From the NCBI GenBank assembly GCA_032173965.1, contig CM063292.1:884501-948500 (forward strand): DNA of 64,000 nucleotides. The letters are read 5' to 3'. A model generated the notes under the pieces. It was not told the DNA's origin. It did no database searches and saw nothing but the letters and a program-made list of their open reading frames with translations. Positions within the stretch are counted from its first letter, which is position 1. Every line of letters starts with the position of its first letter. This stretch comes from Sitta carolinensis (Eukaryota; Chordata; Aves; Passeriformes; Sittidae). The translations under genes and the position numbers were made by a program. This document shows positions 3,430-42,723 of this stretch, piece by piece.

Positions 3430-3646
3430 CCGGGGGGCAGAGCATCCAGGGCGAGCACGGCTGCCCGGGCTGGGGGGGCACTGGGGCCCGAGGCCGCCTC
3501 CTCTGCCTCTCTGGAGCTGCCTGGGGCAGGAAGGGCAGGAGCACTGGAGCCCTGGGCCGTGCCGGCCGCCGCCGGGCTGGGAACGCTGGCACCAGCTGCT
3601 GGCCTGTCCTCATCCATGTCCACGGCTCCCGCGGCGTCCCCGTTCA
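3430..3646 (-). CDS. WWP2: WWP2 coding exon 8, end of linker
   Basis: 217 bp, acceptor TTGCAG and donor GG|GTAAGC. It begins VNGDAAGAVDMDEDRPAAGA and ends VLALDALPPG, the conserved DALPxG lead-in to the first WW domain. The middle is Ala/Ser/Pro-rich low-complexity sequence. The exon ends in phase 2, as needed for a following WW exon outside the window. Confidence 0.9.
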
Positions 3647-6600
3647 CTGCAAAGGCACAGGGCAGCAGGTCAGCACCACGGAGGGCCCAGCCTGGCTGAT
3701 CCTCCCAGGAAGCAGAGCACGTGCTGGGGGAGAACCCAAGCTCGGCACTCTCAGTGCTCCCAGCCTGCAGCAAAGGCAGCACCTGCTTCACCCACACCCC
3801 TCTGGGAACCTCTGCCATCGCCTCCATCTTGAGGCAGAAGCAGAAGGGACTTTGAATTTGTGCCCAGGGTCTCTCCTGCCCCGGGAAACATGCTGCATCT
3901 CCAATGGGAACTCAGGGAATGAGCAGGAGCTCCAAAACAGTGGGTACAGCATCTCCCCTGAGGCAGAGTGAAACCCCTAAGTCAATAGCACTGGCAAGAG
4001 TTAAACTGAACGTTTGGGAAAGGGAAGAGACAGAACAAAGGAAAACTACAAAGAAAACTTGTGAGGAGGAAAATGCAGAGCAAAAAAATGAAAGGGAATT
4101 TGTTAGAGGAGTATTTATTATATAGCCAAAACCCTGAGACCTGGCAGCCCAGCTGAGGAGAACCTTCGGTACAAGACATCCTGGCTGGAGTGGTAAAGCA
4201 AAAGCTTTATAAACCATGAACAAGGAACAAATGAGTGAGGGATGCAGACAGATTTCCATGAGTTAGAGCTGAGAAATGTAAAAAGCTGTAAGAGAAGCCC
4301 AAATATTTAGAAGAATTGTAGGAGAAAGTGTAGGAGAAAGCACTCCCACGAGTGCTGGGTCACCTGTGCCATTGGCCACGCTGTTGGCCATGCTGGTAGC
4401 CGTGCCATTGGCCATGCTGGTAGCTGTGCCATTGGCCATGCTGGTGGCCGTGCCGTTGGCCATGCTGGTGGCCACACCATTGGCTGTGCTGGTGGCCATG
4501 CTGTTGGCCATGCTGGTGGCCACGCCGTTGGCCACGCCGTTGGCCATGCTGGTGGCCACGCCGTTGGCCATGCCATTGGCTGTGCCATTGGCCATGCTGG
4601 TGGCTGTGCTGGTGTGCTGTGAGCTCTTGGCCTGTGGCCGGTGCCGGCTCCTGGCACTGGGGCTCTGCTCTCCACTGCCCGCGTTCCCCCGCGCTGCTCC
4701 GGCCGCATGTCGGTGTGTCCTGCAAGGGAAGGGAACACAGCAGCTGAGAGACAGCCCCTGCAAACCCCACTGCTGTCTCTTCACCCTGCTCTTCTGCTGC
4801 TCCCAGCCAGCACAGCCACCGGTGTCCCCTGGGAAGGGCCAGCATATGGTTCTGTGCCCCTGCTCAGGGCAGTGCCTGGAGCTTCATGCTGCCTGCTCAG
4901 ACCTGCCCACAGTCCTGGCACACACCTGCTGGTGGCAGAGACCCATGGAGGAGTCACCTGGGTGGAACCACCTTGCTTTGTTCACAGGTGGTCACTATGT
5001 GCCACAGAATGGCCCTGGACACTTGCAGCCAGACACCTGCTCACCACAGGATCCCGGCTTGCTCCGTCCACCCCTGCAGATCCCAGGAGATCCCACACCA
5101 CGGTGGGGACCCTCAGCAGTGCCTCGTGCACAGAGGCAGGTGAGGACAGTGCTCCCAGGACAGCTGTGGCCTCCAGAAAAGGAGGGAACAAGCAGCTGGG
5201 AACAATGGGAGCTGAAATCACAGCACGAGTTATGACCAGCTCAGGTGCAGCTACTCCATCTCTTGGGGGTCACTGCCACCCTGGAGCTCACCTGCCACTG
5301 CTCTCCATGGCCAGGGCAGCACAACCTTCACTGGCAGAGCACCTGCAGCTCCCCCAAGCAAACTCACCCCCTTGGACCATCCAGCACAAAGGCATTCCTG
5401 AAAAAGCTGAGTTTCACCTTAAGAATTCATTCCTGTGAGCAAGGAGGGGGACAGGGCAGGAGGGGAGATGCTCCCATGCCAAATCCAGGGGGCCTGGGGA
5501 GCAGAGGCAGAGCCCAGGCAGCAACCACAGAGGGTAGAGACTGCAGGGAAAAGGACATCGGTTTCTCCCAGCCAAAATCTACCTTAAAAGGGCAAAACCC
5601 ACAAACTGTCCCCAAGTCTCAGGGCTGGCGCTGGGAGGGGACAGCAGCTTGGCAGCAACAGGGCACAGATCAGTCATGCCACTCTCAGCAGCTCCAGCAA
5701 CTGGAACCCTCCCTCTTGCTCCAAAGCTGCTCTCCTTGGGGAGCAACTCATGGCAGGGCTGGGAGCGGGAGGAGACATGGGAAAACAGGAGATGGCTGTT
5801 GAAAATAGAGTAAATAGAGCCAGGGGCAGAGCAGGAGCTGCTGTGACCACCTGAGTGAGTCACAGACCACCAGCCAGGGGCTCCTCGAGGGGCTCCCCAG
5901 ACAGTGAACTCCCTGAAACCCCTGCTGACCCCCAGACACGGCTCTGTGCCGGGGCTTGCTTGGGCCACCAGCACCCAGGAACATCTGTGGGTACAGAAGA
6001 GGCTCCTCTTCCCCCATCAGAAGGTGAAGGGGGCCCCTCACTACCATGGCTCAGCAGGGCACACTGGTACCACCCACCTCCAAAAGCTGGCTGGGACCTC
6101 CCTACAGTTCCCCCCAAGGTGAGGCTGGAGGCAGCACAGCCCCCCGAGCCCTGGCCAGAGGGCAGCAGGCAGGTGACTCCAGCCTGTCCCACTGGGAGCA
6201 ACCTCTCTGGCACGGGATGGGTCTGCTCCCTGCCCTCCTCAGCACAGATGAGCTCAGAACTGCCCAGGGAGTTTTTAGAAACCAAAACAGGATGTTTCCA
6301 GCCGGCAGCACAGGGTTACCAGCCTGAATTAGCCAGCCCGCCGCCCAGCCCAGCCCTCCTACGAGTGCTCCCATCTGGGCATTGTCTTTTAATAGACACT
6401 GGAAACAAACCCAGCGAGGCCACAGAGCACGGCGGGATGGCAGTGTGCGCTCAAAATAGAGCAAGGAAAAAGGCAGGCAGAGCACGGATGGGAACAGAGG
6501 GTGGGATGGAGCAGGGGTGCAAGGGACCAAGGGTGGCAGCCCCTCTCCCACACTGGGGGCAAGACCCTGCTGTCCCCATCGACTTGGGGGCCTTGGCTGG

Positions 6601-9600
6601 CTGCCCCATTGCCCCTCCTGGGCTGGGACAGATGATGCCAAAGAGCAAAGTGGCACCAGCCAGGTGACATCAGCCTTTCCTCTTCCCTTCTGCCAAGGTG
6701 GAGGCTCCCAGCCACAGTGGCCAACACGGACCCCAGCCATGAAACCCAGGAATGGCCAGTTCCTGCAGCTGAGATGGCCAGAAGGGCCCTCACAAGATGC
6801 AGCAGAGGTGGCAGCATGTCTTGGTCTCACTCACACATCAGAGCACAGGCTGGAGCTGGCTGTGGGGAGCAGGGCACGATCTCCAGGACAGCCCCAGTGC
6901 CGTGAGGGCAGTGAGAGCACAGCTCCCAAAACACAGAGCTGAGAAATTCCCCCTGTCCCTGCCACCGTGGGGGAGGCAGCCACATCCCCCAGCACCCGAA
7001 CGAGAGAATCATGGATGAGTTTGGGTGTGAAGGCACCCGAAAGCTCATTCTGTTCCACCCCCTGCCAAGGGCAGGGACACCTTCCACCATCTCAGGCTGG
7101 TCCAAGCCCCAGCCTGGCCTTGGACGCTTCCAGGGGTCCAGGAGCACCACGGCTGCTCTGGACAACCTGTGCCGGAGCCTCCACAAACAGGGGTTGTGGC
7201 ACCCACGGCCCCAGCTCTCAGTCAGAGCTCCCTCTCTCCCTGCACAAAGGGCTGTGGAATTTCACACCCCATCACCAAGATTAGCAGCAAATCCCAAGAT
7301 GACATTTGTTCAGGAGAAGAAAGAGAAGCCCTGACCAAGCAATTTCCCTTGCAGGGACAGTGTAGAAATAGCTGAGGAGCAAAGAATGCCCCTTTTCTTC
7401 CCATCCTGCCACTGAGCAACTTTGCCAGCATCCATCACCAAGCCCAAGAAAATAAACAGGGCTCTGTGTATAAACACAGCAACCATCAAACAACATTCCC
7501 AAGTGCAAGGGACCCACATTCCACTCCGGAGCACACAACTGCCTCCACTGTGGGTAGGGAGAGCAGTGCTCTGCCCTCGGAGCAGCACCACATCAAACTG
7601 GGCAGGGATGTCCAGAACAACCCCCAATTCAGGTGAGTGCAGCATGGTGTGAGAACCAGCTCGGAGGTTTCCATACCAGGGCAGCCAGGGGATTTGGCTG
7701 ATGGCAGGCACACCTGGCAGGTGTCTGAAGGTGCCCTGCACAAATCCTGGCCAGACTTCACCACACTCAAGGTTACACCTGAGGCAGAAACTCCTCACAG
7801 CCGTTGGAAAGCACTGGGGAATGGGCAATAAGCAGTGCCTGGGCTCAGCCTCCCAAACCAGGATGTTCTTTGCAGATTTTCTAGCACCTCCTGAGAGCTG
7901 CTAAGTGCCTGCCAAGCACATCTCAGTCAGGTCACTGAGCACTTCCCACCCCTGGGGAGGCTCTAACACCTGGACAGCAGGAATCGACAGGAGCAGCCAC
8001 CACGAAGGGCACGATCTGTGCTCACACACTGCTCTCCCTCCTCGGGTGGGAGATGAACACACAACATGGAAAGACAAGGTCACTTTGTCCAAAAACATCA
8101 ACATTTCGAGCCAAAAACATCAACTCCGGTGTGAGACCAACAGATAAAGGAGCAGAAGAGCTCGAGGTGTGGAGCTTGTAGCTGAGAGTGTTCCTGAGCC
8201 TGGGCCACACAGAACCTCCCATGGACAGGCAGCAGGCACCCCTCCACAGCCACACTCCCACCCAGAACATCTGTACAGGCTGCTGGGCCACTGCCATGCT
8301 CTGGAAATATAAATAGGTGTTAAATTCAACTCCATGTTGACAGTGTGACACGTCTCTCAGTAACCACAGCTCCAAAAGGAGCAGGCTGAGCCACTCCAGC
8401 CCAGCAAGGAGGCAGGGCAGGGCAGGGCACAGAGCCAGGTGCAGGATGGCCTGCTGCCCAAGCTTCTCACTTCCTTTGGAAGCAGCTGTTATTTCCCTGC
8501 AGCTCTGCTTCTTCTGCTCTCCCTGCACCTTTTTAAGCATCTCCCCATGGCCGTTGCCTGGAGGGGCATTGTGCTTCTCAGCCTGTGCTGGAGGGAAGAG
8601 CTGGGGTTCCTGTGATCCCTATTTGAAGGGACCCCACTTTGCTGGTTTGCCTGGTCACAGCCTGCCCCACTCCCAGACAGACCATTTTTTCAGCTGCCAG
8701 TGGAACAACTGGTGGAAACTCTCTGAGCCATCACAGACTTGATACTCCCTGAGACACCAACAGTTTAGGAGAGGCTCAGGCCAGCCCAGCTGTACAGCCA
8801 ACTCTGTGCACTCCCAGCTCTGTGTTGTCCCCCAGCACAGGCCACCCCTGTTCCACACCTCCCGTGTGCTGCATGCCAGGGGCTCTCTGGGAGACCTGGA
8901 GTGGGGGGCACGGCACAAGGACAGCCCAGACACAGCCACAGCACCCCCTCAGTAAAGGACACACGTCACAGGACCCTCACCTCGGTCTGCTGCCAAAGCA
9001 GTTGGTACTGGGAGGTTGGTGCCGGCCCTCCGTGGCCACAGCTGTGCTGCTGGGGTCCCGTCCAGACACCTGGGGCCCTGCATGTGGGAAGAACAGGGTG
9101 AGGAAAAGGGCTGAACCACCTGGACATCTACCCTCTTTCCCACCTTCCAGAAAGGAGCTCCAAAAGCACAACAGCCCCTTCCCTTGCAGGACAGACCCCC
9201 AGTGCCCAAGGACCCCCCCCTCACACCCGGCACTGCCTGGCCCCCCCAGCACACCCCAGCTCCAAGAGAGACACAGGACTCTGCACTGCATCCACAACTC
9301 CCAGATTTCACAGGTCTTGTCTTCCAGAGACAATGAGGAGCCAATGAAAGCAATGCACCAACCCCTGTTCTGTACAAGCTTTGCTCCCCTGAGATCAGCC
9401 ACCAGCCCCCGACCCCACACATGCTCTGCCATGGGGAGCTCTGGTGAGTGGATCAGCAGACACTGACACCATTTCCCAGCCCTCACAGCCAGCGAGGGCA
9501 GGGGCTGATGTGTGTGGAAGGCTGGAGGAGGGCTGGAGAAGGGCCTGGGCTCCTCCCAGGCTGCAGGGGAGGCTGGGGTGAGCCTGTCCAGGCTCCCGTT

Positions 9601-12600
9601 CTGCTCCTGCCGGCGGGAGCCCCCGGGGCCGGGGCGGGCAGGGGCCTCACCGGGGGCGGGTGCTGGCCCGGGGACCCCGAGCCGGGGCTGCCGGGGCCGC
9701 GCTGCCCGCGCCCCGTGCGGGCCGGGCACTCACCCTCGGAGCCGGCACTGCCGTCGGGAACGCTGCCCAGAGCAACAGCCGGCCCGTCCAGGAAAACCGT
9801 CAGCTCTCCGCCCGACACAATGCTGCCTTTGTTCTCCGTCTGCAGGTCCAGGGTCAGCTGCCTGTTCTCCACTGCGGCGGCGGGACAAGGAAGAGACCCC
9901 CGGTCAGCACCGGGACACCGGCCCCGGCAGAGGGGGCTCCACTGCCCCGGCCCCCACCTCAGCCTCCCGGGCTCCCCCGGGCCTCCCCCAGCCCCAAAGG
10001 ACAATGTGCCCACTCCCTCAGGGCCACCTGTCCCAGCGAGCACCACCAGTGCTGGCCCCACACCTGCACACAGCTCCCAGCACTGCCAGAGGACCCCGGC
10101 CAGTCCCACCACCCGCTCCGGGGAAGATCCTTCTTCACCAGCCCTCGGGATCCCTTCACCCCGTTCCTGGGGCTGCAGCTGCCCCAGGGGCTGTGACACC
10201 AAGACCCCCATTGCTCACAGATCCAGGAGCTGGGGCTGTAGGGCAGATCCTGGCAGGAGAGCCAAGGGATTTCACAGAATCACCAGGTGGGAAGAGACCT
10301 TCAAGATCATCGAGTCCAACCCATGTCCTAACACCTCAACTAAACCATGGCACCAAGTGCCACATCCAGTCTTTTTTTAAACACATCCAGTGATGGTGAT
10401 TCCACCACCTCCCCAGGCTGACGATCTCAGTAATTTATCACTCTTTCCATAATAAACTCTTTCCTAACAGCCAACCTATATTTCCCTCTCATTCTGTCAG
10501 CTGCTGCCTGGAGAGAGAGACCAACCCCCCTGACTATAACCACCTTTCAGGGAGTTGTAGAGAGTGATAAGATCACCCCTGAGTCCCCTTTTCTCCAGGC
10601 TAAACACCCCCAGCTCCCTCAGCCGTTCCTCACAGGGCTTGTGTTCCCAGCCCCTCACCAGCCTTGTTGCCCTCCTCTGGATGCACTCAAGCATCTCGAC
10701 ATCCTTCCTAAACTGAGGGGCTCCTTTAAGATGACACAAGGGGCAAGAGGGGTCCTGCATGATGGTGACCATCCCTCCATCCACATCCCCATGCATCGAC
10801 TGCACGGAACGAAACCAGCACGGAGGGCTGTCCCCAGACAGGAACACTCTGCTGCAGCACTGGACCACGTTCACAGAAGGTTCTGGAGAGGGTGCCACAG
10901 GCTGGGAGGCTCCTGGAGACAGCTGCCAGCTCCACTCCCTCCTGTGTGAGCCAGTCTGGCTTCATCAGCTTCAGCAAGGTTTTGCTGGTCCCTGGGGGCA
11001 GGGGGGCACAGCACAGCCCTCAGCAGCCACCCCATCACAGCAATGCCTGCCAGTGCCAGCCAGACTGAAACACTCGGCTCCATCACAGAAGGCCAGAAAA
11101 AATTTGGCTGCACCAGCCTGGGACACTGGCCCAGACGCTTCCTGACTCATTTGCTCAAATAATATTTTTATTATACACGGATTGCTCATGACACAATGGC
11201 ACCATTTTTTAGCAACCTGCTTTGTGCCGGTGCGACGCGGGGACGGGGTGCGGCTCAGGCCAGCAGGAGCAGGATGGGAACACATCCCCATGGAGCCCTT
11301 GTCCCACCTCTAGCTGCGAGCTGTCCCGCACAGGGACTTGACACTTCCTTCTCCAAGGCCCCCCAAAACTCAGAGACACAGGGAGGGTCTGCAGAGAATG
11401 CTGAAGGGCCGCGGGACAGGCGGCACTTGAGGATCTGAGGGAAGTCTCCAGTTTTTAGAGCCAAGCAGGCAGGTGTCTCCTGCACAACAGGGGCACAGCT
11501 CTGTCACTGATCACCATCATCTGACAAGGGATTCTGCTGAGCCTGGTCCTCCCCGCTGCCTCACGGAGCTGCACTCCGCTTGCTTCCATGGGAAACCGAC
11601 CTCACAGACAGTTTTAAGAGCCTGAGACAGAAGATGCTACTGAGCACGGCCAAAAACCAGAACAAATCCAGACCCTGTTTCCCCCCTGGCTCCTCCAAGC
11701 CGTAGGAATCTGCATTTTCTCCAGGGTCCCTCCATCCCCCTCCACGCGCGCCGCGCTCCGGGGCCGCACAAGCCCTCATTGTGCGGGCGCCCAGCTGAGG
11801 CGCAAAGACAAGGTGTCTCCAAGTGGAGGATGTGAACATGAACCTCCCAGCCGGCTTCCTTCTGCCCCCCTCCGCCCCCTCCAGCTTTTTTAAAGAAAAT
11901 AAACACTCACAGAACCTTCCCCTCCCTGTCCCCGTGCAGCGTGCGGGACGCACAAAGGGACATTGCTGCTGCCCCGACGGCGGGTCCCCCGAAGGGCCCG
12001 GCACAAAGGCTGCCTCTGTCCCGATGGCTGCCAGAATGTCAGAGGGATTATTATTATTTTGGGAGGGGGTCGGGGGGTGATTTGGTCCTGAATAAGGTCT
12101 CAGTTCAGCTACTTCCAGCGCCCTGCACGCAGCATCAGAGCTCCCATTTAGCAGAGGTGAGCTGGAATTCCCACCCAGCCCATTAAGCGGATTTACGGTT
12201 CCACGAAACGAGGCTGGGAGCAGCCGGTGTGATAACAGCCCTGGGCTGAGTCCCAGCCCTGGGACCCCCAGGAACCACACGTGTCTGACCCCAGGGAGCT
12301 GCCACACGGGATGGAGAGCTCCTCTGGAAGACCCTGTGTGAGCTGGCTCCATCTGCACAGCTGCGTCCCAGAAGATTTTCAGACAGAAAGCCAAAATGAG
12401 CTTCCCAGGCTCTCAGCTTCCCAAACCCAGCGCCAGCTCTTTGCCCAGTCCCACTGGTTGCAAAGGCCAGTTCCCATTCCAACAGCTCCATGTGATCATC
12501 TGGGTTTTGTCCGGGATGAATCAAAGCTCCCTGGTGCCAAGCAGGTGAAGACTGGCTCAGCCTCTGTGCATTCCCACAGAAGGAATGACTCCATGTCATG

Positions 12601-15600
12601 ACTCCAGTGACTGCATGTCATGGCTACAGTGACTCCAGGAACAAGCAAGGGGTAAGTTAAACCTTAAACAGACAATCCCAAACCAAGAAGGAACACAGAG
12701 TCTAGGGGAAGGGGTAGTCTTCAGTGTCCCATGAAAGTCTCCTCAGGGAAGCTCTGCCTTTGCTGCTGATCCAACCTTAACCACACATCAACTGTGTCCC
12801 ACTCCATTTTTCTGCCAGGGATAACCCAGGTTTCTGTATCTTTCCTCTAAAAGGTGACAAGGATGAGCACTCTCCAATCCCCCCAGTGACCTACTGGCTG
12901 GCTGACCAGTTTTGTGGGATTACATGCTGGCTCATGCTGGGACATGCAGCACAGCACAGCTCCTTTGGCATCACAGCCACAATGGGGTGGAGCTGCAGTT
13001 TTCCAGAGGCTGGGAATTGCTGCTGGTGTCCTGGAGGATCCCAGGAGGCTGCAGTTCCATCCACTCTGCCTGGGGCACCGCAGCAGGGACTGAGGGATCT
13101 GTAAAGCCCTGGCACGTGGGCTCACAGTGGGACCAGCACAAGCAGCACGGCCCAGGATGGGCTCCCACAGAGCCCAGGATGCGAGCCCAGCCGGGGGCAG
13201 CGGCGAGGAGCTCCCGGAGCCCGGGAACAAAGAGGTGCCTCTGCAGCGGCGGCAGCTCAGGGGCCGCGGCCGGGGGCCGTGCCATGGCAAACGAGCTGTT
13301 TTATGGGAGCCCTGGGAGCAGCTCGGCTCCTGGCAGGCTCCAGCCCGTGTGGGTGATTGAGCCGGCCCTGACCCACCTCTCCCGGTCCCGGCCAATCCCG
13401 GGAAGGCGGGAGGAGCCGCCTGCCAGCGCAGAGGCCCCGCAGGAAGCGCTGCGAGTCCAGAGCCGGGCCGGACCCGGCACAGGAGCTCCTGCGGCAGCCA
13501 GGCTGTCGGCTCCAGAGGCTCTCACAGCCTTCCCGGGAGCTCCGGCCTCAGCACTGAGCCTTTTCCCCCTGAAGTGAGGCATGCTTGGCAGGAGGGCTGA
13601 CAGCAGCATCCTGGCAGGCAGGAGCCTGGCACAGACTGCCACAGGTGTCACCAGCAGTGAGGACAGTGTCCTGCCCACTGAGGAGAAGGACAGGAACATC
13701 AACCAAAGGCCACAGCTACCCTCACAAATCAGCATCTTTCATAAAGCCTCACCAAAACCATAATAAACCCAATGAAGAGAGGGTCTGGAGCCCCTCTTGG
13801 CTGAGCACATCTCAGGATGGGAGAGGAGGGCCAGGCCCCTCCAGTGGCAGAGGGCACATGCATTTCAGTGCCTTTCACATTAAGTGTCTGACTTAGAAAG
13901 CCCAGCTGCCTTCTGCATGCCCTTGCCTGACCCAGCCCCTTCCTGAGGCTGTCAGGCAGAGGGAACACACTCCCCTATTCCCAGGAGGAGAGAAGCCCCT
14001 GAGGAAGGATCTCCTAAGCTCCCATGGCAGCCCCAGCAGCCTCTGGCCACTCAGACCCGCAGCAAAGCCCGAAGGCTGAGCATGAGCCTGCAGAGAAGAG
14101 GAGGGAGCAGATGCCAGCCCAGACAAGGAGGGTAGGCAGGAGCAGACAGGCAGCACCTTCCCAGGCAGGGCAGGGCAGGCTCTGCAGCTTTAAGAGTCCT
14201 TCCTCCCTCCCAGCCCACAGTGTCAAGGAAAAATCTGACACGTTTTTTCTGGGGATGTTAACAGACAAGCTAGAACAGCCAGTTGCCTTTTCCATTCATT
14301 TTCCACACAGCCCCCCGGGATGGCTGGGAATGAAAGAGCCAATTGTGCCCCCGTGGCGGCGCAGGTAGGGCGGGAACCGCGGCGGCTCCGGGAGCCCAGC
14401 ACGGCCCCTGCACACCTCGGGAAATAACGGCTGAAGGGAGGGTGCCCAGGGACACAGCTCCCAGCCGTGGGGCTGGCTGGCAGCTACAGCCCAACAGAGC
14501 CAGCCCGAGGCACACATCCGCGTCCCCACACGTTCTTGGTGAGCAGGCAGCAGCGGCACAGCTCCCACGTGTCCCTCACAGCCACAGCACCCGGTGCCAC
14601 CCAGAGCCACCGTGGGGACACCGGTGCGGTTTCAGAGCTGGCGGCACCAGGTGAAGCAGCTCACCCCAACCCCCAGCACCGGGGAGGGTCTGACCCAGCC
14701 CCGAATCCCTCGGGGCGCAGGAGGCCCCTCTCCCCGCTCAATACCAGGTCTGTGTCTCACAAGCTTTGCTTGGAAGAGACAGAGCCAGCCTTTTCCAGCC
14801 CCGCGCGGCCGCTCGCGCCGCCCCGGCCCTGAATGGCCGCCTTTATGTGGGAGCTGCTGTCACGAGCCACGCTCTGGCAACCGCAAACGGCAGCAAATAG
14901 CAGAGGGGTTTGTGTTCCCGAGCCGGCCGCGGCGCCCGGGCTGACGCAGGTACGGCTTCCGACACGCCCGGCCCGGGCACACAACGGCACCTTGTTCCAC
15001 CACGGCCACCCCTGCCCCATCCCTGCCCCATCCCCTTGTACGTACGTTTGCCGCCGCCTTTGAGCAGGCTGCCGAGGCTGACGGAGGCGGCGCCCAGCAG
15101 CTCGTTCCTCAGCGTGTGGCAGATCCACACCTTCAGCTCCAAGTGGCTCTGAGCCGTGACATTCCTGCAGGCACCAAGGAAGAAGGCTGGCATCATGGCT
15201 TCATGCCTGCTCCATGCTTGGGGAGCAGGCAGTGCCACAGGCAAGGAGCAGAGGAAGGTGGGCAAGGACACGGGGCAATGGGAGACTCCCCCAGCCACTG
15301 CCCTTCCAGCCTGGCTGTCTCTGGCAGCGTCCTCATGCAAGGGGCAAAGCTCTGTGACACCTGAGTGTCCCCAGCCCCTGAAGGGCACACGGGGCCAGCC
15401 CCTGACCCGCCCCACAGCAGGGGTCACACAGACTCACAGGGTGAGGATCTCGTTCCACAGCAGCTCAGAGACCCCCATCTGCTTCCCCGTCTTCTTGGTC
15501 TCACTGGGCAGCCCATCACCAGCAACCTCCACGTAGCAGTTCATCCGTGCTGGGCGGCTCTGGGCCTTGGGCTTCACAGACACAACTGGGCAGGGACAGG

Positions 15601-16141
15601 CACAGGGTCAGGCCTGCGAGATACCCTGTCCCCTGCCCGGGTCCCCCACCCCACCCCTGCCAGCTCAGGGTGCCACGACTCACAGCAGAGTGCTGGGAGA
15701 GGGGCAAGGCTCCTGGTGGCAGCGATGGCTGGCACCAAGCCCTGACCATGCGTGTCCCCACCTTCACCCCTCCGAGGGTGGCAGGACTGTCACTGGGGAC
15801 ACCTCCCCACCCCAGGGCACGGGGCGAGATGGGCCGGGGCACCCGCAGGCCAGCAGAGGCAGCGGAGGGGCAGAGCTGGACGCGGCTCCGAGGGCCGCGG
15901 CTCCGGGCGCCGGGAGCCATCTCGCGGCCACGGCGGCACCAGCGCGGCCCCGGGGCCTCGGCCCGCGGCACACAGGGCCGCCCCCGGGGCCGTGTGTCAG
16001 CCCGGCGTGCGGGCAGAGCGCGCAGGACACATTCCCGGCAGGGGCAATCCCGGCGAGCCTGCAGGACCCACCTTTCACGGAGAGCAGGGACTTCTCGCAG
16101 GGCAGCCCGGGCCTGGCCCTGCTGGAGCTGGCAGCGGCCAT
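3430..16141 (-). CDS. WWP2: WWP2, NEDD4-family HECT E3 ubiquitin ligase, 5' half (seven coding exons)
   Basis: Coding exons in transcript order are 16141-16072, 15585-15438, 15164-15046, 9871-9734, 9077-8981, 4719-4364 and 3646-3430. Every junction is GT-AG and all phases agree, giving 381 residues before the left edge. The product opens MAAASSSRARPGLPCEK, followed by a C2 domain (about residues 20-135, with NVTAQSHLELKVW and CHTLRNELLGAASV), then a Ser/Thr/Pro-rich linker with the WWP2-type string RHQPPSTNCFGSR. By family knowledge the C2 domain binds membranes and restrains the HECT domain, and the WW domains bind PPxY substrates; WW and HECT exons are not in the window. The start was chosen by match to the WWP2 N-terminus and lies 14 nt inside the exon after a clean acceptor. 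The linker is about 80 residues longer than in mammals because of a tandem repeat (residues about 227-309). Promoter shared head to head with NOB1. Confidence 0.95.
4364..4719 (-). CDS. WWP2: WWP2 coding exon 7, linker carrying the octapeptide repeat
   Basis: 356 bp, 118 whole codons, acceptor TTGCAG and donor ACA G|GTGACC. The 5' part encodes the conserved THRH..GEQSPSARSRHR linker. From about 4612 down to the donor it is a 24-bp tandem repeat encoding variants of ATSMANGT, in frame throughout. The exon joins in phase to the next as ..VANGT|VNGD.., which matches the mammalian ANGTVND string. The mammalian exon has one such unit where this one has many. Confidence 0.93.
4365..4612 (-). repeat. 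WWP2: 24-bp coding minisatellite in WWP2 exon 7
   Basis: About nine full and several half units of a 24-bp tandem repeat; each half is a diverged 12-mer. On the plus strand a typical unit reads GCCATTGGCC followed by ATGCTGGTGGCCGT. On the coding strand it reads Ala-Thr-Ser-Met-Ala-Asn-Gly-Thr/Val. All length steps are multiples of 12 bp, so the WWP2 frame survives. Units differ mostly at third positions and by Val/Thr/Met swaps. Confidence 0.95.
4720..8980 (-). other. WWP2: WWP2 intron 6 (between exons 6 and 7)
   Basis: 4.3 kb, GC-rich. It contains one CR1 fragment (about 7007-7195). Flanking exon phases join directly, so no further constitutive coding exon is needed here. The long plus-strand open frames (for example around 5855-6667) look like chance frames in GC-rich sequence. 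Confidence 0.7.
7007..7195 (-). mobile_element. CR1 LINE 3' fragment
   Basis: The plus strand shows reversed CR1 tail motifs (GAATCATGGATGAGTTTGGG, GGCAGGGACACCTTCCACC). Old and diverged, within WWP2 intron 6. Confidence 0.7.
8981..9077 (-). CDS. WWP2: WWP2 coding exon 6, linker
   Basis: 97 bp, acceptor ATGCAG and donor AG|GTGAGG. It encodes PQVSGRDPSSTAVATEGRHQ and then PPSTNCFGSRPR. The last part is the diagnostic conserved block of the WWP2 linker. Confidence 0.94.
9734..9871 (-). CDS. WWP2: WWP2 coding exon 5, C2 domain end
   Basis: 138 bp, acceptor CCGCAG and donor G|GTGAGT. It encodes ENRQLTLDLQTENKGSIVSG and then GELTVFLDGPAVALGSVPDG, the final strands of the C2 domain and the start of the linker. 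It is GC-rich like the sequence around it. Confidence 0.95.
9872..15045 (-). other. WWP2: WWP2 intron 4 (between exons 4 and 5)
   Basis: 5.2 kb intron holding a long CR1 copy (10272-10730). Locally GC-rich patches lie at about 11,700-12,010, 13,190-13,560 and 14,780-15,000. Exon phases on either side join without an extra exon. I recognise no independent gene. Confidence 0.7.
10272..10730 (-). mobile_element. CR1 LINE 3' end with remnant of ORF2
   Basis: The plus strand starts TCACAGAATCACCAGGTGGG, the reverse of a CR1 tail. The minus strand encodes RRATRLVRGWEHKPCEERLR and GDLITLYNSLKGG, the typical CR1 reverse-transcriptase C-terminus. 5'-truncated, in WWP2 intron 4. Confidence 0.9.
15046..15164 (-). 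CDS. WWP2: WWP2 coding exon 4, C2 domain
   Basis: 119 bp, acceptor CTGCAG and donor C|GTACGT. It encodes NVTAQSHLELKVWICHTLRN followed by ELLGAASVSLGSLLK, a strongly conserved C2 stretch. A second GT four bases further (GTACAA) would break the phase into the next exon. Confidence 0.94.
15438..15585 (-). CDS. WWP2: WWP2 coding exon 3, C2 domain start
   Basis: 148 bp, acceptor CCCAG and donor CT|GTGAGT. It encodes SVKPKAQSRPARMNCYVEVA and then GLPSETKKTGKQMGVSELLW, the first half of the C2 sandwich and nearly residue for residue the vertebrate WWP2 sequence. Confidence 0.95.
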
Positions 16142-17620
16142 GGCATCACCCCCAGCTGGAAGCAGAGAGAGGAGACACCTCAGCAGCGCTCCCACGGCGC
16201 CCAGAGAGCCCAAACACAGCCCAACGCTGCTGCGAGTGCCCGGCACGGCAGGGACGTAGGGAAAGGGCAGGGCAACGCCCGGGACACACAGGCTCCCTCT
16301 CCTGATAAACCAGCCCTGCACCAGAGGCAACGCTGTGTCCCTGGGAGAGCAAGCCCTGCACGGCAGCACCACAGCTGAGCTGGGCTGTGCCACCTCCAGA
16401 CACCCCTCTGGGCACCTGAGCCCCTGACCCACAGGTCAGTGCTGCTGGGGGACAGAGCAGCCACCAAAGCCTGGCCCTGGGGGACACTGACCCACCACAC
16501 ATCAACGAGATGGCAAGGACATGGCAGTGGCACCGGCTGGACAGAGGAAGGCCTGGTCACAGCATGGGGACCACGTCCCTCAAGGGCAGCCCCGGTCTCA
16601 TTATGGTACCAAGCCCCACAGGATTGTCACCCCCCGCACAAGGAGACACTGTGGCACCAGGGAGGGGGGCAGGACACCAAAGGCCAGAGCCTCTGCCCAG
16701 AGCAGCGACCACGGAGCAGAGGGATGAGGTCACCCACCACGGAGGAGCACGAGCTGGGACCGCGAGTCAGCCGTGGGCCTGCCCCTGCCCCGGCCCCGGC
16801 CCCGCTCCCCGCCACTCCCCGGAGCTGCAAGGGACGGGGCCAAGGTCACGGCCCAGCCGGGAACTGCCTGGCCGAGACCACTGCCAACCTCCCCCTCCCC
16901 TGATCTGGGGAAGCAGGAAAAGAGGGAAGCAGCTCCAGCCCCTCTCCCTGTGCTGGAGCCTCTTCCCTGCCCTCTCTCTACATCCTCCTTAGACTGTACC
17001 GAGCCCCATCCCACGGCAGATTCCCTGGGAAATCCCCTCTCCCAGGGTCTCTGTTCTCCGTGCCAGCACAGCACAGCACAGCCCGGCACGCCAGGGCCCG
17101 GCTGTGCCTCGCACAGCGCCCACTCTGCCTGCGAGTCCCCGTTTGGCACTGCCCGACCGCTGTCCTGGCCCCATCCAGGGCTCCCGGGCACGGCCCGGCC
17201 TCCCGCCCCTGCCAGGGGGTCACTCACCAGCCTCACCGCTACACAGCCTCCCCCGCTCCCATTATCCCGGCCCACACATCGCCGACCTTCCCTGAGGAGA
17301 TCGGACACTCCAGTCCTCCTGTGCCCAGCTCCACATCACACGGATTCCATCGGGGCCATGCCCCTGCCGTGCCAGCCCGTGCCCAGCCCCGTCCGGCTGG
17401 GCTGGCTCCAGCCTTCTTTCACTCTTTTCCCCATTCCCTCTTTTCCCGACTCCACACCGTTCCTCTGTCACTCGCTCTGACACACCCGGTAACGTCACCA
17501 AACAGCTCCGGGCCCTCAGGAGCGCCCGGTGCCCAGCGCTCCCCCGGGCACAGCGTTCCCGTCCCGCGGCCTCTGCCCGCCCCTCAGGGCCCCTCAGCCG
17601 AGCGGGGCCGGGCCGCTCAC
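15586..17620 (-). other. WWP2: WWP2 introns flanking exon 2
   Basis: 15586-16071 is the short intron between exons 2 and 3. 16157-17620 is intron 1, reaching the putative noncoding first exon. Both are GC-rich with overlapping chance open frames and no recognisable protein. Confidence 0.6.
16072..16155 (-). CDS. WWP2: WWP2 first coding exon (exon 2)
   Basis: The acceptor CTTCCAG ends at 16156. Fourteen bases of 5'UTR follow, then ATG at 16141-16139 and 23 codons plus one base to donor G|GTGGGT. The peptide MAAASSSRARPGLPCEKSLL matches the WWP2 N-terminus. An ATG four bases upstream is in another frame and is not supported. Confidence 0.93.
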
Positions 17621-17900: not shown

Positions 17901-17955
17901 CAGGCCGTGTCCGGCGGCCGGACGGGAGAGCCCCAGTGCTGGGCCGAGAAGCGAA

Positions 17956-18020
17956 GCCCAGCCCAGCCCAGCCCAGCCCAGCCCAGCCCAGCCCAGCCCG
18001 TCCCGTCCCGTCCCGTCCCG
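17956..18020. repeat. Pentanucleotide repeat (GCCCA)n then (TCCCG)n
   Basis: About eight GCCCA units pass directly into four TCCCG units, inside the shared promoter and close to the expected WWP2 transcription start. It is likely length-polymorphic. Confidence 0.9.
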
Positions 18021-18250: not shown

Positions 18251-18313
18251 ATGGCGCGTGTTCCGCACGTCGTGGCCGACACGGGCGCGTTCCTGAGCGC
18301 GGCCCCGCTGCAG
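18251..18313 (+). CDS. NOB1: NOB1 exon 1
   Basis: 21 codons, MARVPHVVADTGAFLSAAPL then Q, donor CAG|GTACCG. It holds the first catalytic aspartate, Asp10. An in-frame ATG at 18236, also in good context, would add MGHTD. Confidence 0.93.
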
Positions 18314-20731
18314 GTACCGGGGGAGCGCCGGGGAGACACCGGAGGGGCGGGGGGGACGAGGGATCCCGGGCCGGTGTGACGGCGCTGCCCGCAGGACATC
18401 GCAGACGCGCTGTACACCGTGCCCGAGGTGCTGGCCGAGATCCGCGACCGGCCCGCCCGCCGCCGCCTCGCCGCGCTGCCCTGCGAGCTGCGCGTCCGCC
18501 GCCCGCGCCCCGAGCTGCTGCGCCTCGGTGAGTGCGGGGCAGCCCCGAGCCGCTCCTCTGCCCCGCGGCCCCGATGGTCCCCGCCGGCCCCCGCGGCCCG
18601 GCCCGGCCCGACGGCGCCGCTGTTGCCGCCCGCAGTGACCGAGTTCTCCAAGAAGACCGGGGACTACCCGAGCCTCTCGGCCGCTGACCTGCAGGTGCTC
18701 GCCCTGACGTGCCAGCTGCAGGCCGAGATCGACGGCCCCGGCTGCCTCCGCTGGGAGCCGCAGGACAAGGTAGGACGGGCGCGGGGCCGCGGTGCCGGCT
18801 CCCCGTGCCGGCTCCCCCGGTCGCTCCCCGGTATCGGCTCCCGGGCCGTCCCCGGTATCGGCTCCCCCGGTGCCGGCTCCCCCGGTGCCGGCTCCCCCGG
18901 TATCGGCTCCCCCGGTATCGGCTCCCCGGTGCCCACGCCCCGCGCTGCCCCCCAGGTGCGGCTCAGCTCCACGCCGCGGCACCCCGAGGCCCCCCTGCAC
19001 CTCGCCGGCTTCCACCTGCCCAAGGTAAGGCACGGCGGGAGGGCGAGGGCTGCGCCCCCCGAGCCCCGGCTGAGCGATGCCCGCGCTGTGTCCCCAGCAC
19101 AAGCCCGCGGGGAAGGGCCCGCACCCGCCCGGCCCCGGCCCCGGCCCGGCCCCGGCATCGGAGAGCGACGAGTTCGGATCCTTCCTGTACTGGCGGCCGC
19201 CCCTGCCCAGCATCGAGGAGGAGCTGCGGGAGCTGTTGGTGAGGATTTTCTGGAGTCTGCTCCCTGTCCTGGCTCTGCGCTTTCTGGCTGGCTTTTCCCG
19301 ACCCCTCTGTGCCACCCTGACCGTCTCCTCCCCTCGTTTGCCCCAGGCCATCTCCGGTAGCCCCGAGCCCCCCGAGGAGCACCGGAGCTCTGCAGATGGG
19401 ACCAGTGCCGGCGAAGAGGAGGAGGAGGATGAGGAGAGCGATGATGAAGGCTGGATAACTCCCAGCAATCTGAAGCAGGCCCAGCAGGACACGGGGCACT
19501 GCGACACTGCCCCCATCGGTGTCCAGGTCGGCTGTGTCACCACAGACTTTGCCATGCAGGTGGGTGCTGGGCTCAGACCTTGGGGTCCCACCAAAGCAGG
19601 GCTGAGTGCCCGGGCAGGGGAGAGCAGCTCTGGGACAGCTCCGTGTGCCAAACAGCAGGGTGTCAGTCCCAGAGAGCCTGCTGGGCTCGCAGTGGCCCAG
19701 CTGGCAGGGCCAGGTCCCAGCTGTGTCCCTGCTCTTGCAGAACGTGCTGCTGCAGATGGGGCTCCACGTGCTGGCTGTCAATGGGATGCTGATCCGCCGG
19801 GCCCGGAGCTACATCCTGCGCTGCCACGGCTGCTTCAGGTGCTGGGGCTGGGCTGAGCCCGGGCTGAGCCCCTGTCCACGGCCCCAGGAGCTCTGAACCC
19901 CTCTGTCCCACCCTCGCAGGACCACCTCAGACATGACCAAGGTGTTCTGCCCCCACTGTGGGAACAAGACCCTCAAGAAGGTGGCAGTGAGTGTCAGTGA
20001 CGATGGCAGTCTCCACATGCATTTCTCCCGCAATCCCAAGGTGCTGAACCCGCGGGGCCTCAGGGTGAGTACCCGGACAGAATCCCAGAGTCACTGAGGG
20101 TGATCAAGATCTTCGAATTCAACCTGTGACTGATCCTCACCTTGTCAGGCAGCCCAGAGCACTGACTGCCATGTCCAGTCAATTCCTTGGACACCCCCCG
20201 GGATGGGGACGGCACCACCTCCCTGGGCAGCCCCTTCCCATGTTTAACAACCCTTTCTGTGAAAAAATTCTTCCACTGGGACCCCAGGGATGGGAGCCCA
20301 GCCTGTGGCTGGCAGGCTGGAGGGAATCAAAGCCAAACAGAGAACATCCTCCAGATGTTGCACTTGGACCCCAGGGCGTTTGGGTTTCCCTGCTCAGCTC
20401 TCCGAGGGCTGTGGTGAGCTGGGAGTCCCTGGGAGCCGGGGCTGATCCCTCTCTCCCGCAGTACCCGCTGCCGGCGCCGCAGGGAGGGAAGCACGCCAAC
20501 AACCCGCACCTGGTGGAGGACCAGCGCTTCCCGCAGCAGCGCCTGTCCCGCAAGGCCCGGCAGAAAACCAACGTGTTCGACCCCGACTACCTGGCCGGGG
20601 CGTCTCCCTTCGCCGAGAACGACGTGCACAGCCGGGCTGCACAGCTGCAGCTGCGCGACGCCGCCCTGGGCGCCGGCCGCCGCCGCCTCAACCCCAACGC
20701 CGTCAGCAAGAAGTTCGGGAAGAGGAGGTGA
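18251..20731 (+). CDS. NOB1: NOB1, PIN-domain endonuclease for 18S rRNA maturation
   Basis: Complete gene with nine coding exons: 18251-18313, 18395-18527, 18636-18769, 18956-19024, 19098-19238, 19347-19559, 19741-19838, 19920-20064 and 20462-20731. All junctions are GT-AG and the phases close exactly on 421 codons plus TGA; the human protein is 412. The PIN domain opens VVADTGAFL with catalytic-type Asp10, and TEFSKKTGDYPSLSAADLQV follows. An acidic stretch lies at about residues 205-218, then GWITPSN. A zinc ribbon uses Cys279, Cys282, Cys294 and Cys297. The C-terminus LGAGRRRLNPNA..KKFGKRR is highly conserved. By family knowledge NOB1 cuts 20S pre-rRNA at the 3' end of 18S in the cytoplasmic pre-40S particle. 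Start chosen by match to MAxVxHVVAD. Poly(A) signal at 20883; convergent with NFAT5. Confidence 0.97.
18395..18527 (+). CDS. NOB1: NOB1 exon 2
   Basis: 133 bp, acceptor CCGCAG and donor G|GTGAGT. It encodes DIADALYTVPEVLAEIRDRP and more of the PIN domain, including the conserved acidic EVLAEI. Confidence 0.95.
18636..18769 (+). CDS. NOB1: NOB1 exon 3
   Basis: 134 bp, acceptor CCGCAG and donor AAG|GTAGGA. It carries TEFSKKTGDYPSLSAADLQV, the most conserved PIN segment with its aspartates. Confidence 0.96.
18820..18932 (+). repeat. 15-bp GC-rich minisatellite in NOB1 intron 3
   Basis: About six tandem copies of GGTATCGGCTCCCCC or GGTGCCGGCTCCCCC, with shorter variants on the left. They occupy most of the 186-bp intron between exons 3 and 4 and end about 25 bp before the acceptor. 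Confidence 0.88.
18956..19024 (+). CDS. NOB1: NOB1 exon 4
   Basis: 69 bp, 23 codons, acceptor CCCCAG and donor AAG|GTAAGG. It contains STPRHPEAPLHLAGFHLPK, matching the conserved HPETPLHISGFHLP of mammals. Confidence 0.95.
19098..19238 (+). CDS. NOB1: NOB1 exon 5
   Basis: 141 bp, acceptor CCCCAG and donor TTG|GTGAGG. A Pro/Gly-rich low-complexity opening precedes EFGSFLYWRPPLPSIEEELR, the conserved FxxFMFWRxPLP motif of the family. Confidence 0.95.
19347..19559 (+). CDS. NOB1: NOB1 exon 6
   Basis: 213 bp, acceptor CCCCAG and donor CAG|GTGGGT. It encodes the acidic linker (EEEEEDEESDDEG) followed by GWITPSNLKQ and VGCVTTDFAMQ. Confidence 0.96.
19741..19838 (+). CDS. NOB1: NOB1 exon 7
   Basis: 98 bp, acceptor TTGCAG and donor AG|GTGCTG. 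It encodes NVLLQMGLHVLAVNGMLIRR and the first zinc-ribbon knuckle, RCHGCF. Confidence 0.96.
19920..20064 (+). CDS. NOB1: NOB1 exon 8
   Basis: 145 bp, acceptor TCGCAG and donor AGG|GTGAGT. It encodes TTSDMTKVFCPHCGNKTLKK, the second zinc knuckle, then the LHMHFSRNPKVLNPRGLR block. Confidence 0.96.
20089..20330 (-). mobile_element. CR1 LINE 3' fragment in NOB1 intron 8
   Basis: The plus strand reads as the reverse complement of a CR1 tail, with ACCTCCCTGGGCAGCCCCTT and CAACCCTTTCTGTGAA motifs. It is truncated and diverged. Confidence 0.75.
20462..20731 (+). CDS. NOB1: NOB1 exon 9, last exon
   Basis: 89 codons plus TGA at 20729-20731, acceptor CCGCAG. It encodes YPLPAPQGGKHANNPHLVED and ends LNPNAVSKKFGKRR, the basic C-terminal tail of the family. 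Confidence 0.96.
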   Translation, partial: YPLPAPQGGKHANNPHLVEDQRFPQQRLSRKARQKTNVFDPDYLAGASPFAENDVHSRAAQLQLRDAALGAGRRRLNPNAVSKKFGKRR

Positions 20732-31465: not shown

Positions 31466-31498
<33 letters not shown>

Positions 31499-40400: not shown

Positions 40401-42679
40401 CAGCTCCTACTTAAAAGGTAACAAGGTCAGGATTCACTGAAACACTTCATAAATAAGAGCAGGTCAGACATCAACATCTTCCTGCAACCCAGTGTTCAAG
40501 TCTTAATTATCCCAGAATATGTCAGTGAAAAATACATTCATTTTTGTAACATCAACACCCTGGCATGAAATGGTTTGTGCCCTCTTAATCCTTTTTTTTA
40601 TTAGAGGGATCCCATTGGTGACACAGACTAAAAATACTCTGAGGTAAAACAAGTCCTGAAGTAAACCTGGACATTGCATTACAAAGGAAATTCCCCTTCT
40701 TTTTAGGAAATAGTTAAGAAAAATACTCCAAGTGAAAATTCCAAATTCCTAGGGCAGAGATGGAAATGTCTTGCCAGAGCATTCTAGGAGATAAAATGAG
40801 TATTTTAGTGTTTCCACTGAGACATATTTGTTGCTCAAGGGTTTCTGGGTGACAGTGTTGTCTTTTGTCCCAGGCCTGGAAGCCCAGGCAACACCTGCAG
40901 CTCCAGTTTCAGTAGTGAGAAGATGCAAAGGAGAGCAGAATCCTCTGGAGAATCTCTTGGGGGACAGACACACTTAAAAAATGGAGTTCTGAAGTTCGCA
41001 GCAAGTTTGAGTCAAGGAAAAAAAATCAGTAAACCAGCAAATACTGGTAAGATCATTGTGAGCTCATGTCCAAGAGGAGCAAATAACAAATGTGAGTGTC
41101 AGAGATGAGCAGAGCCCCAAGATCTCTGGAGGTGGCCCAGCACAGGCATCCACAAGGAAGCCACAGGCACAGCTCACAACAAAGGGCTCAACAGCCAGGG
41201 CCTGGATTAAGGCTTGGCTATACAATTTTAACATTGCATACTGCTTGTAGACTCCAGTTCTAAGTCATCCAGAAGAGAGTTTTATTTAAATGCCCACTGA
41301 GCCTGCTTCTCCTCCTTGGCCTGTGTTAGGGACATGCTCCTGAGCCTCTCCCAAGTGCCAGGTCTCTGCTGAGCACCAACAGCTTTACACTCTCTTCCCC
41401 ACCTTTAAACCCCACAAACAAAACAAAAAAAAACCCTTGTCAATAACATAGTTTTTTCCCCACTAGCTCAGATTTCCTGAAGATTCACTGACTCATTTGT
41501 CTGTCCAGCCCTGGCAGAGTTTTATCTGCAGGGTATGAACTCGTCTGCCTACTGCTAAAGCAAACTGGAACTTCCAGGAATTCAGTAACAGGAGACTCTT
41601 CCAAAGAGAATTTTCACTGATGGGTGCTAAAGGGTAACTGGGAAAGGAGTTAAAAGGAAATTCAGATGCACAAAGGCCCATTAAGAAAATCCACATAAAT
41701 GAGCACTAAATCCCCATAGCAACAGGCCGATATGAATGGATTCTTTTCTTATGAAACTTTACTGGAGTTCTGCATTACTCAGGAGGACTGAGTGAAGGGC
41801 TGCTGGCATTCCTAACACTGCTGAACAGGACTTTGAAGATAAGCCTACTTCTGTATTCTGTCAGCAGCAGTCAGCACGAATTTTAAGGCTGTGTCACAAA
41901 CAAACATCTCCTTGTGGGCCTGGTAAGTTAGTTTGGGTGGAGAACTGCTTTGCTGCTTTTTCAAAGTGACATAACTAAGAAAAAATATTAAATGAAATAT
42001 CTTTCACCCTCCTCATCTATGTGATAACAAACCTAGCTGCCTACTCACTCAACCTGCTGGCCACACTCCTCCCAGTATGCCCAGTATGCCCTGGTGCAGT
42101 GCTGGCCTCGACTCAGTTCTCTGGTGACTCTTACATCACTTGTGGGAGGATATTTGACATCAGTTCTGTTTGCCCCCCTAAGTCAAGCCTAGCCTTGCTC
42201 TTGGTAAGCCTTTCTACCATTTCCAACAGGAAACCACCTCAAGTCCTCGAGTTCTCCAGTTGCTTTCCCCAGGCTACACAGGGAAGAAACAAGACCTGCA
42301 AACTCCCACCCTGTGCATTTGTGTGCAGTCCCTGGAGGACAGCCTCAGCCTTGCCTCCTGAGCAGAAATATCAAGGATCTCCTTGTAACCCTCTTGTGTT
42401 TCTACTCAGAGCAAGAGGCCTCCAGCACCTGAATTCTAAGGCACTGAAGTCCACAGAGGAAACAGTCTACAACTGTCAGTGTGCACATAAATGCTGCCTC
42501 TTTCCTTGCCAACATTCTCTAGTTCTAATCCACAGCTACCTCTACCACCTCCACCTGTGCCATGCTAAACACTCTGAGCAGTACAACCTGTAAAACACCC
42601 CAGTGAGATCTCCATGACTCTCTTGACACTGTATATACCAAATCAGATATTGCTGAATTAAGAACAAAAACCACCAAGC

Positions 42680-42723
<44 letters not shown>

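What the first reader, a model, noticed from the sequence alone, without database searches (positions are those of the whole stretch)
4365..4612. Coding minisatellite inserts an ~80-residue ATSMANGT array into the WWP2 linker
Seen: a 24-bp tandem repeat with 12-bp sub-periodicity, all in frame, inside WWP2 exon 7 between the C2 and first WW domains. Known: mammalian WWP2 has a single Ala-Asn-Gly-Thr-Val-Asn string at the same site. Inferred: lineage-specific expansion of the exon end. It gives a low-complexity Ala/Thr/Ser/Asn/Met spacer that could change C2-HECT autoinhibition or offer new phosphorylation or O-glycosylation sites. The size probably varies between individuals and species.
Basis: partly seen in the sequence, partly recalled or inferred. 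Interest (0 to 1): 0.82.

Follow-up and report, generated by a model that had tools for sequence, protein, structure and literature searches.

The report
Growing repeat inside songbird WWP2 gene
A songbird ubiquitin-ligase gene carries a stretch of 20 repeated four-amino-acid units whose number differs widely between bird species, giving the protein a longer floppy spacer; it is a real and fast-changing feature, but of a familiar kind.

Summary
On the minus strand, WWP2 exon 7 (window 4719-4364) contains 20 consecutive in-frame 12-bp units (4604-4365, no indel). They encode A-[N/T]-[G/S]-[T/M/V] tetrads and stop one base before the conserved splice donor. Seven coding exons have GT/AG sites and consistent phases. 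Orthologues settle what it is: the distance between two conserved anchors is 10 residues in two mammals and tuatara, 14 in 16 of 21 non-passerine birds, and 18-86 in 15 passerines; the window's 86 is the longest found. 38 of 40 complete models share one length class modulo 4 residues (12 bp). Growth most simply happened at least three times (passerines, pigeon, hornbills). AlphaFold2 of a relative gives nearly the whole linker pLDDT under 50. The array has no charged, Pro or aromatic residues. Published biochemistry puts WWP1/WWP2 autoinhibition in WW2, the 2,3-linker and WW3-4; deleting C2 had little effect in WWP1. This argues against the proposed change in C2-HECT autoinhibition. Best reading: a tolerated, rapidly evolving coding minisatellite acting as a passive spacer. 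Within-species variation and expression were not testable. Similar arrays occur in an unrelated gene (SLC22A6-like) of owls and a manakin.

The parts
4365..4604 (-). coding minisatellite: 20 in-frame 12-bp units encoding A-[N/T]-[G/S]-[T/M/V] tetrads
   Evidence: unit-by-unit parse, no indel; TRF score 200/239 against a shuffle maximum of 52
4605..4613 (-). worn partial unit (ACC AGC ACA = TST) preceding the array
   Evidence: sequence and translation
4364..4719 (-). WWP2 array exon (exon 7 if there is one noncoding first exon), 356 bp
   Evidence: acceptor CTTGCAG, donor CAG|GTGACC, phases match neighbours; donor scores best of the GTs in 4340-4719 by a recalled weight matrix
3430..3646 (-). 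next WWP2 exon, begins (G)TG AAC GGG GAC = VNGD, ends at the start of WW1 (LPPG)
   Evidence: acceptor and phase, donor CGG|GTAAGC
8981..9077 (-). WWP2 exon 6 (linker)
   Evidence: tblastn and splice sites
9734..9871 (-). WWP2 exon 5 (end of C2 and linker)
15046..15164 (-). WWP2 exon 4 (C2)
   Evidence: Pfam C2 hit over the spliced protein, E 2.2e-05
15438..15585 (-). WWP2 exon 3 (C2)
16072..16155 (-). WWP2 exon 2 with the ATG at 16141 (MAAASSSRARPGLPCEKSLLSVK)
   Evidence: sequence read; weak tblastn hit of an avian N-terminus there, E 0.028

Best explanation
It is a coding minisatellite at the 3' end of WWP2 exon 7. It arose from a short seed (ANGT-ANGT-VNGD, similar 12-bp units straddling the splice junction) found in 16 of the 21 non-passerine birds compared (length class 14, exact residues vary a little), and has grown and shrunk by whole 12-bp units through replication slippage or unequal exchange. 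Each step keeps the reading frame and the donor, and falls in a disordered linker between C2 and WW1, so it is tolerated. In the protein it acts as an uncharged, flexible spacer that lengthens the tether between C2 and the WW-HECT part from about 165 to 237 residues, and it should be present in both the full-length and the WWP2-N forms. Shown: anatomy, frame, orthology, stepwise length differences between species, low-confidence (disordered) prediction for a relative. Inferred: slippage or exchange as the process, near-neutrality, spacer role. The expected effect is small: a random-chain estimate gives 1.20-1.26 times the end-to-end distance and a 1.7-2.0 fold drop in the local concentration of C2 near WW-HECT.
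For: Seven coding exons with GT/AG sites and consistent phases. Orthologues with the same exon end (ANGT or a close variant, then [V/A]NGD) in birds, turtle and tuatara. Lengths between K[S/N/G] and the VNGD-type motif: 38 of 40 complete models are 2 modulo 4. The 40 come from 63 rows tabulated (the window and 62 of the 105 proteins fetched; the rest were second isoforms, near-duplicate species, fragments without this exon, further mammals, or other genes). 23 of the 63 were dropped because the model reads past the array into other sequence, splices inside or next to the array, or starts in it; 11 of those 23 could be measured apart by taking the last ANGT as the end, and 10 of the 11 are 2 modulo 4. 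15 of 15 passerines have 18 or more residues, 12 of 15 have 26 or more; 3 of 21 other birds have 18 or more (Anas acuta 18, Buceros 34, Columba 50). Relatives 93-97% identical outside the array (Junco, Passerculus, Geospiza) have 10-11 units against 20. AlphaFold2 of the Chamaea orthologue: C2 and WW1 carry the strands; all but 2 of residues 148-352 are under pLDDT 50, with no helix or strand there. Chain estimate. The published WWP1/WWP2 locks are WW2, the 2,3-linker and WW34 (PMC6639328).
Against: No DNA from other species was available, so 12-bp steps are read from proteins. No RNA or protein evidence was seen for this bird. Two complete models break the length rule (Gallus 15, Chelonia 7), and one read-through model (Zosterops 49) lacks one residue. 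The low pLDDT comes from a shallow alignment (36 rows; mean pLDDT 54, pTM 0.38), so it suggests disorder rather than proves it. Ala is kept at position 1 of 147 of 151 tetrads (117 of 118 oscine, 12 of 15 suboscine, 7 of 7 hornbill, 11 of 11 pigeon), which could mean constraint rather than neutrality. pN/pS between units is 0.64 in the true frame against 0.86 and 1.31 in the others: inconclusive. Both protein searches scored only the candidates sharing most words (7995 and 7997), so the species sample is incomplete.
Confidence: 0.78

Rival explanations
1. Functional tether: the longer spacer measurably changes WWP2 regulation, by altering C2 docking, membrane targeting or autoinhibition, and was selected for that.
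For: Growth in passerines, pigeon and hornbills at one site; the linker rises from 161-165 to 237 residues; the array is also in a WWP2-N-like model (Chamaea P0002 ends after WW1), a form which in mammals modulates SMAD2 signalling (PMC6689010 passages; PMC10988806 passages).
Against: C2 deletion has little effect on WWP1 activity and C2 does not bind HECT stably there; WWP2 uses WW2, the 2,3-linker and WW34 as locks (PMC6639328). Ostrich and chicken models have linkers of 212-213 residues without an expanded array, so length as such seems tolerated. The estimated effect is about two-fold at most.
Confidence: 0.12
2. Start-codon ladder: the array's in-frame ATGs serve as internal starts for WWP2 proteins that lack C2, and unit number sets how many starts there are.
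For: All 9 of 9 in-frame ATGs in the array have a purine at -3 and G at +4. Predicted isoforms of Alca torda (P0098) and Amazona (P0103) begin exactly at the seed's Met (MANGT...); the Alca one is an exact suffix of the full-length protein P0049.
Against: The strong context is a by-product of the unit sequence (RGCATGG). The two isoforms are predictions and come from birds with a short seed. Upstream ATGs precede the array in the normal mRNA. No full-length Amazona protein was fetched for comparison.
Confidence: 0.05
3. Not fully coding: the array is partly removed by splicing at donors inside it, or is partly an assembly or annotation artefact.
For: Several models (Junco a, Zosterops a, Serinus, Catharus, Ficedula b and c) splice inside the array or skip its end. 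In the window, unit 11 holds a fair donor in the right phase (ATG|GTGTGG at 4478, 1.95 against 3.16 bits for the true donor).
Against: Complete models from many species read through to VNGD in frame. Junco and Zosterops each also have a model with a long array (P0101, P0102). The true donor scores best of the GTs in the exon. The array's units are diverged, not a simple stuttered copy.
Confidence: 0.05

Closest known systems
WWP2 (NEDD4-family HECT E3 ligase), avian and mammalian orthologues
   Same: C2 exons, linker motifs (THRH, GEQSP, RSRHR), ANGT|V junction, neighbouring gene NOB1 head-to-head; 97.4% identity to a Junco model over 194 columns and 94.6% to Passerculus over 259 outside the array
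   Different: 20 units at the exon end instead of 1 (mammals, tuatara) or 2 (16 of 21 non-passerine birds); longest of 40 complete models compared
Coding minisatellites / protein VNTRs in disordered regions (DRD4 exon 3 recalled; MUC2 exonic minisatellites seen in a search listing)
   Same: in-frame tandem units longer than 9 bp, whole-unit length changes, product predicted disordered
   Different: sits in a regulatory ligase linker; repeated growth in several bird orders; no function or within-species polymorphism shown
RUNX2 QA repeat (proposed evolutionary tuning knob; abstracts of PMC3438065, PMC5418715, PMC7738678 read)
   Same: length-variable coding repeat in a gene needed for skull development (mice deficient in WWP2 have craniofacial malformations: PMC6620385 passages)
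   Different: polyglutamine/polyalanine tract whose variation alters transactivation; here a 12-bp minisatellite in a linker with no trait link, and even for RUNX2 no link to face length was found across 41 placental species or in marsupials
ANGT/ANSM-type array in SLC22A6-like transporters of Strix owls and Manacus candei
   Same: four-residue units of similar composition (ANGT, ANGM and the like)
   Different: unrelated gene; position in the large extracellular loop is recalled from the family's topology; separate origin presumed, DNA not available to test

Membership tests
WWP2 (C2-WW-HECT ligase) | C2 domain at the N-terminus | tested here: met
   Pfam C2 E 2.2e-05 on the spliced protein; ITCH C2 structure 2nq3 matched at 1.2e-07
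WWP2 (C2-WW-HECT ligase) | four WW domains and a HECT domain | not testable with these tools
   the last exon found stops at the first residues of WW1 (LPPG) and no WW1 exon was hit in the remaining 3.4 kb of window; many orthologues found carry WW and HECT Pfam domains
WWP2 (C2-WW-HECT ligase) | orthology rather than WWP1 or ITCH | tested here: met
   top hit is a protein named WWP2, 84% over 100% of the query; NOB1 lies head-to-head, NFAT5 beyond (vertebrate gene order recalled)
coding minisatellite | tandem units above 9 bp inside an exon, in frame | tested here: met
   20 x 12 bp, no indel, in frame with both splice junctions
coding minisatellite | whole-unit length differences between species | tested here: met
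   38 of 40 complete models 2 modulo 4, measured on proteins
coding minisatellite (VNTR) | length polymorphism among individuals | not testable with these tools
   single sequences or gene models per species; no reads available
disordered linker | no stable fold predicted | tested here: met
   AlphaFold2 pLDDT under 50 through the array of the Chamaea orthologue, 36-row alignment, mean pLDDT 54; the window's own array was not folded
evolutionary tuning-knob repeat | repeat length changes protein activity or a trait | not tested
   no trait or assay data

The most novel reading that the evidence does not exclude
The array is an evolutionary tuning knob in songbirds. Changes of one 12-bp unit at a time adjust the output of a ligase that modifies Goosecoid and SMADs, either through spacer length or by supplying in-frame starts for C2-less forms, and so feed heritable variation in skull or beak shape.
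Probability: 0.04. Interest if true: 0.85.

Novelty: new member of a known kind. Interest (0 to 1): 0.42.

Why it matters
It is a clear natural series of linker lengths (0, 1, 2, 3, 5, 7-12, 15 and 20 units among the complete models) in an otherwise conserved ubiquitin ligase, with growth in several bird lineages. That makes it a ready-made experiment on whether disordered-linker length matters in C2-WW-HECT enzymes, and a warning for annotation: a number of songbird WWP2 models are cut, spliced or run into the intron at this array.

Tried and rejected
C2-HECT autoinhibition as the main effect: rejected as leading reading because of published WWP1/WWP2 biochemistry, though the text read states the C2-deletion result for WWP1, not for WWP2, and does not test the C2-WW1 linker itself.

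DNA or RNA hairpins as the cause or function: folding of 4365-4612 is little better than shuffles (z -0.95 as DNA, -0.82 as RNA). Structured RNA: no Rfam family at gathering threshold and no tRNA in the window. Selection test by pN/pS between units: inconclusive.

Looking for the same repeat elsewhere: no exact match to a 30-base pattern in viral contigs. A protein search with the owl SLC22A6-like array gave 4 hits among 384 candidates, the query included: three Strix entries (one named only as an uncharacterized protein) and Manacus candei. That search did not return the WWP2 arrays either, so it is weak evidence that other genes lack such arrays. Whether the minisatellite is dispersed in this bird's own genome stayed unanswered.

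Literature (titles and starts of abstracts seen): no paper in the library holds both 'WWP2' and 'passerine'; none of the 10 with 'WWP2' and 'finch', the 15 listed of 51 for 'WWP2' and 'tandem repeat', the 10 for 'coding minisatellite' and 'birds' (on PRDM9 and recombination), the one, or the 15 listed of 36 is about this array. Subscription papers are not covered.

Tree: 33 rows, 315 columns, 8 of 30 inner branches well supported; some rows are poor models (Serinus, Lamprotornis, Ficedula fall outside, Corvus has a long branch). It puts the window near oscines and no closer. Order assignments of most species are recalled; four species were looked up.

Full report
WHAT IS THERE. The finding lies on the minus strand. 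Tandem Repeats Finder reports 4372-4604 at period 12 and 4373-4614 at period 24; in 100 dinucleotide shuffles of the surrounding 3 kb the best score was 52 against 239. In the WWP2 frame the array is exactly 20 units of 12 bp, 4604-4365, without an indel: 7 ATSM, 5 ANGT, 4 ANGV and one each of ANGM, ANSM, ATST and ANSV. It ends one base before the splice donor (CAG|GTGACC); the next exon starts TG AAC GGG GAC, so the mRNA reads ...ANGT-VNGD...

IS IT CODING. All three sense frames are open through the array, so an open frame is no evidence by itself. The evidence is the gene around it: WWP2 coding exons at 16155-16072 (ATG at 16141), 15585-15438, 15164-15046, 9871-9734, 9077-8981, 4719-4364 and 3646-3430, with GT/AG sites and consistent phases, a C2 domain by Pfam, and NOB1 head-to-head upstream (matches at 18251-20728). 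Orthologous proteins from other birds carry the array in the same place. No RNA or peptide evidence was available.

WHICH BIRD. Outside the array the window protein is closest to oscine songbirds: Junco 97.4% over 194 columns, Passerculus 94.6% over 259, Gymnorhina 93.8% and Geospiza 93.4%. The tree resolves no further, and some of its rows are poor gene models.

HOW IT EVOLVED. From 63 tabulated rows (the window and 62 of 105 fetched proteins) I kept 40 complete models, one per species, and measured the distance from the conserved Lys-[Ser/Asn/Gly] to the next exon's VNGD-type motif: Apus 6; turtle 7; two mammals and tuatara 10; 16 birds 14 (ostrich, kiwi, cassowary, tinamou, two ducks, swan, peafowl, bamboo partridge, falcon, owl, crane, penguin, stork, bustard, auk); chicken 15; Anas acuta, Corvus, Gymnorhina and Taeniopygia 18; Phainopepla 26; Buceros and Willisornis 34; Hirundo and Oxyruncus 38; Acridotheres and Vireo 42; Geospiza and Lamprotornis 46; Columba and Passerculus 50; Prinia 54; Chamaea 66; window 86. 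38 of 40 are 2 modulo 4 (exceptions: turtle and chicken). Of the 23 rows dropped, 11 run past ANGT into other sequence and could be measured apart by taking the last ANGT as the end (10 of 11 are 2 modulo 4; Zosterops lacks one residue); 12 splice inside the array, skip it, start in it or break off near it and were not used. So the length moves in steps of four residues. 15 of 15 passerines have 18 or more; 3 of 21 other birds do. Since falcon, owl and crane keep 14, growth in passerines, in Columba and in hornbills is most simply read as separate events (bird phylogeny recalled; the alternative is an old expansion lost many times). Apus suggests that the array can also shrink.

WHAT THE PROTEIN LOOKS LIKE. 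In the passerine, pigeon and hornbill sets 147 of 151 tetrads begin with Ala (sum of the rows: oscine 117 of 118, suboscine 12 of 15, hornbill 7 of 7, pigeon 11 of 11). The window array has no K, R, D, E, P, H, C or aromatic residue. AlphaFold2 on the Chamaea orthologue with 36 sequences places strands in C2 and WW1; all but 2 of residues 148-352, array included, lie under pLDDT 50 without helix or strand (mean pLDDT 54, so a shallow-alignment caveat applies). A full-length model (for C2-HECT contacts) was not obtained. The C2-WW1 linker has 237 residues in the window, 161 in Pongo and 165 in Falco; ostrich and chicken models reach 212-213 without an expanded array, so linker length seems generally tolerated. 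A simple chain estimate puts the rise in end-to-end distance at 1.20-1.26 fold and the fall in effective concentration at 1.7-2.0 fold (inference).

MECHANISM. In PMC6639328 (passages, part 1 of 3 of section 5, and section 11 read; [quoted passage not shown] C2 as inhibitor is described for Smurf and Nedd4 members. PMC9034101 (passages) likewise places WWP2 autoinhibition in the 2,3-linker. So a passive spacer is the best-supported role. The array should also be in the short WWP2-N form: the Chamaea model P0002 ends right after WW1 like the mammalian N-type models; in mammals that form affects SMAD2 signalling (PMC6689010 and PMC10988806, passages).

OTHER POSSIBILITIES KEPT OPEN. All nine in-frame ATGs of the array have a strong start context, and predicted C2-less isoforms of Alca torda and Amazona begin exactly at the seed's Met. 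A cryptic donor in unit 11 (4478) is in the right phase and scores not far below the true one. Mice deficient in WWP2 have craniofacial malformations like those lacking Goosecoid (PMC6620385, passages), which makes a RUNX2-like tuning-knob reading conceivable; RUNX2 itself is a caution, since no link between its repeat and face length was found across 41 placental species or in marsupials (abstracts of PMC3438065 and PMC5418715).

A PARALLEL. A similar four-residue array sits in SLC22A6-like transporters of two Strix owls and of Manacus candei. Short cryptic repeats may be good seeds in GC-rich bird exons; without DNA this stays a guess.

VERDICT. A real, well-defined and fast-evolving coding minisatellite; a new member of a known kind, with unusually clean comparative data and no demonstrated function.

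Noticed in passing
P0026-P0028 (Strix uralensis, Strix aluco), P0106 (Manacus candei), residues about 87-200: SLC22A6-like transporters carry an array of a similar four-residue type (ANGT, ANGM, ANSM and the like) after WHLL and before TEPC; 82 residues between anchors in the owl entries, 114 in the manakin.
   Followed up: partly
P0098 (Alca torda), P0103 (Amazona ochrocephala): Predicted WWP2 isoforms that lack C2 start exactly at the Met of the seed unit (MANGT...); the Alca isoform is an exact suffix of the full-length protein.
   Followed up: partly
avian WWP2 models P0066, P0075, P0078, P0082, P0088, P0092, P0096, P0097, P0099 and others: A number of songbird WWP2 gene models splice inside the array, skip it or run into the intron after it; annotation of this exon looks unreliable.
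   Followed up: partly
window 18251-20728, + strand: NOB1 exons, head-to-head with WWP2 across a GC-rich stretch (0.705-0.731 GC at 16-20 kb) that also holds several short tandem arrays (17955-17999, 18790-18933).
   Followed up: no
window 34363-43337, - strand: NFAT5 Rel-homology exons (three cleanest matches 93-97% identical to a recalled human segment); a (CTG)10 tract at 31467-31496 reads (CAG)10 on the NFAT5 strand and may be a polyglutamine tract.
   Followed up: no
window 4478, - strand: Cryptic splice donor ATG|GTGTGG in array unit 11, in the same phase as the true donor; its use would remove 114 bases (38 codons) in frame.
   Followed up: partly
P0005 (Cygnus), P0014 (Strigops), P0050 and P0051 (Ciconia): Some bird WWP2 models have about 50 extra linker residues upstream of the array exon (ECRP...SECQQPPP... 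or similar), another sign that linker length is tolerated.
   Followed up: no
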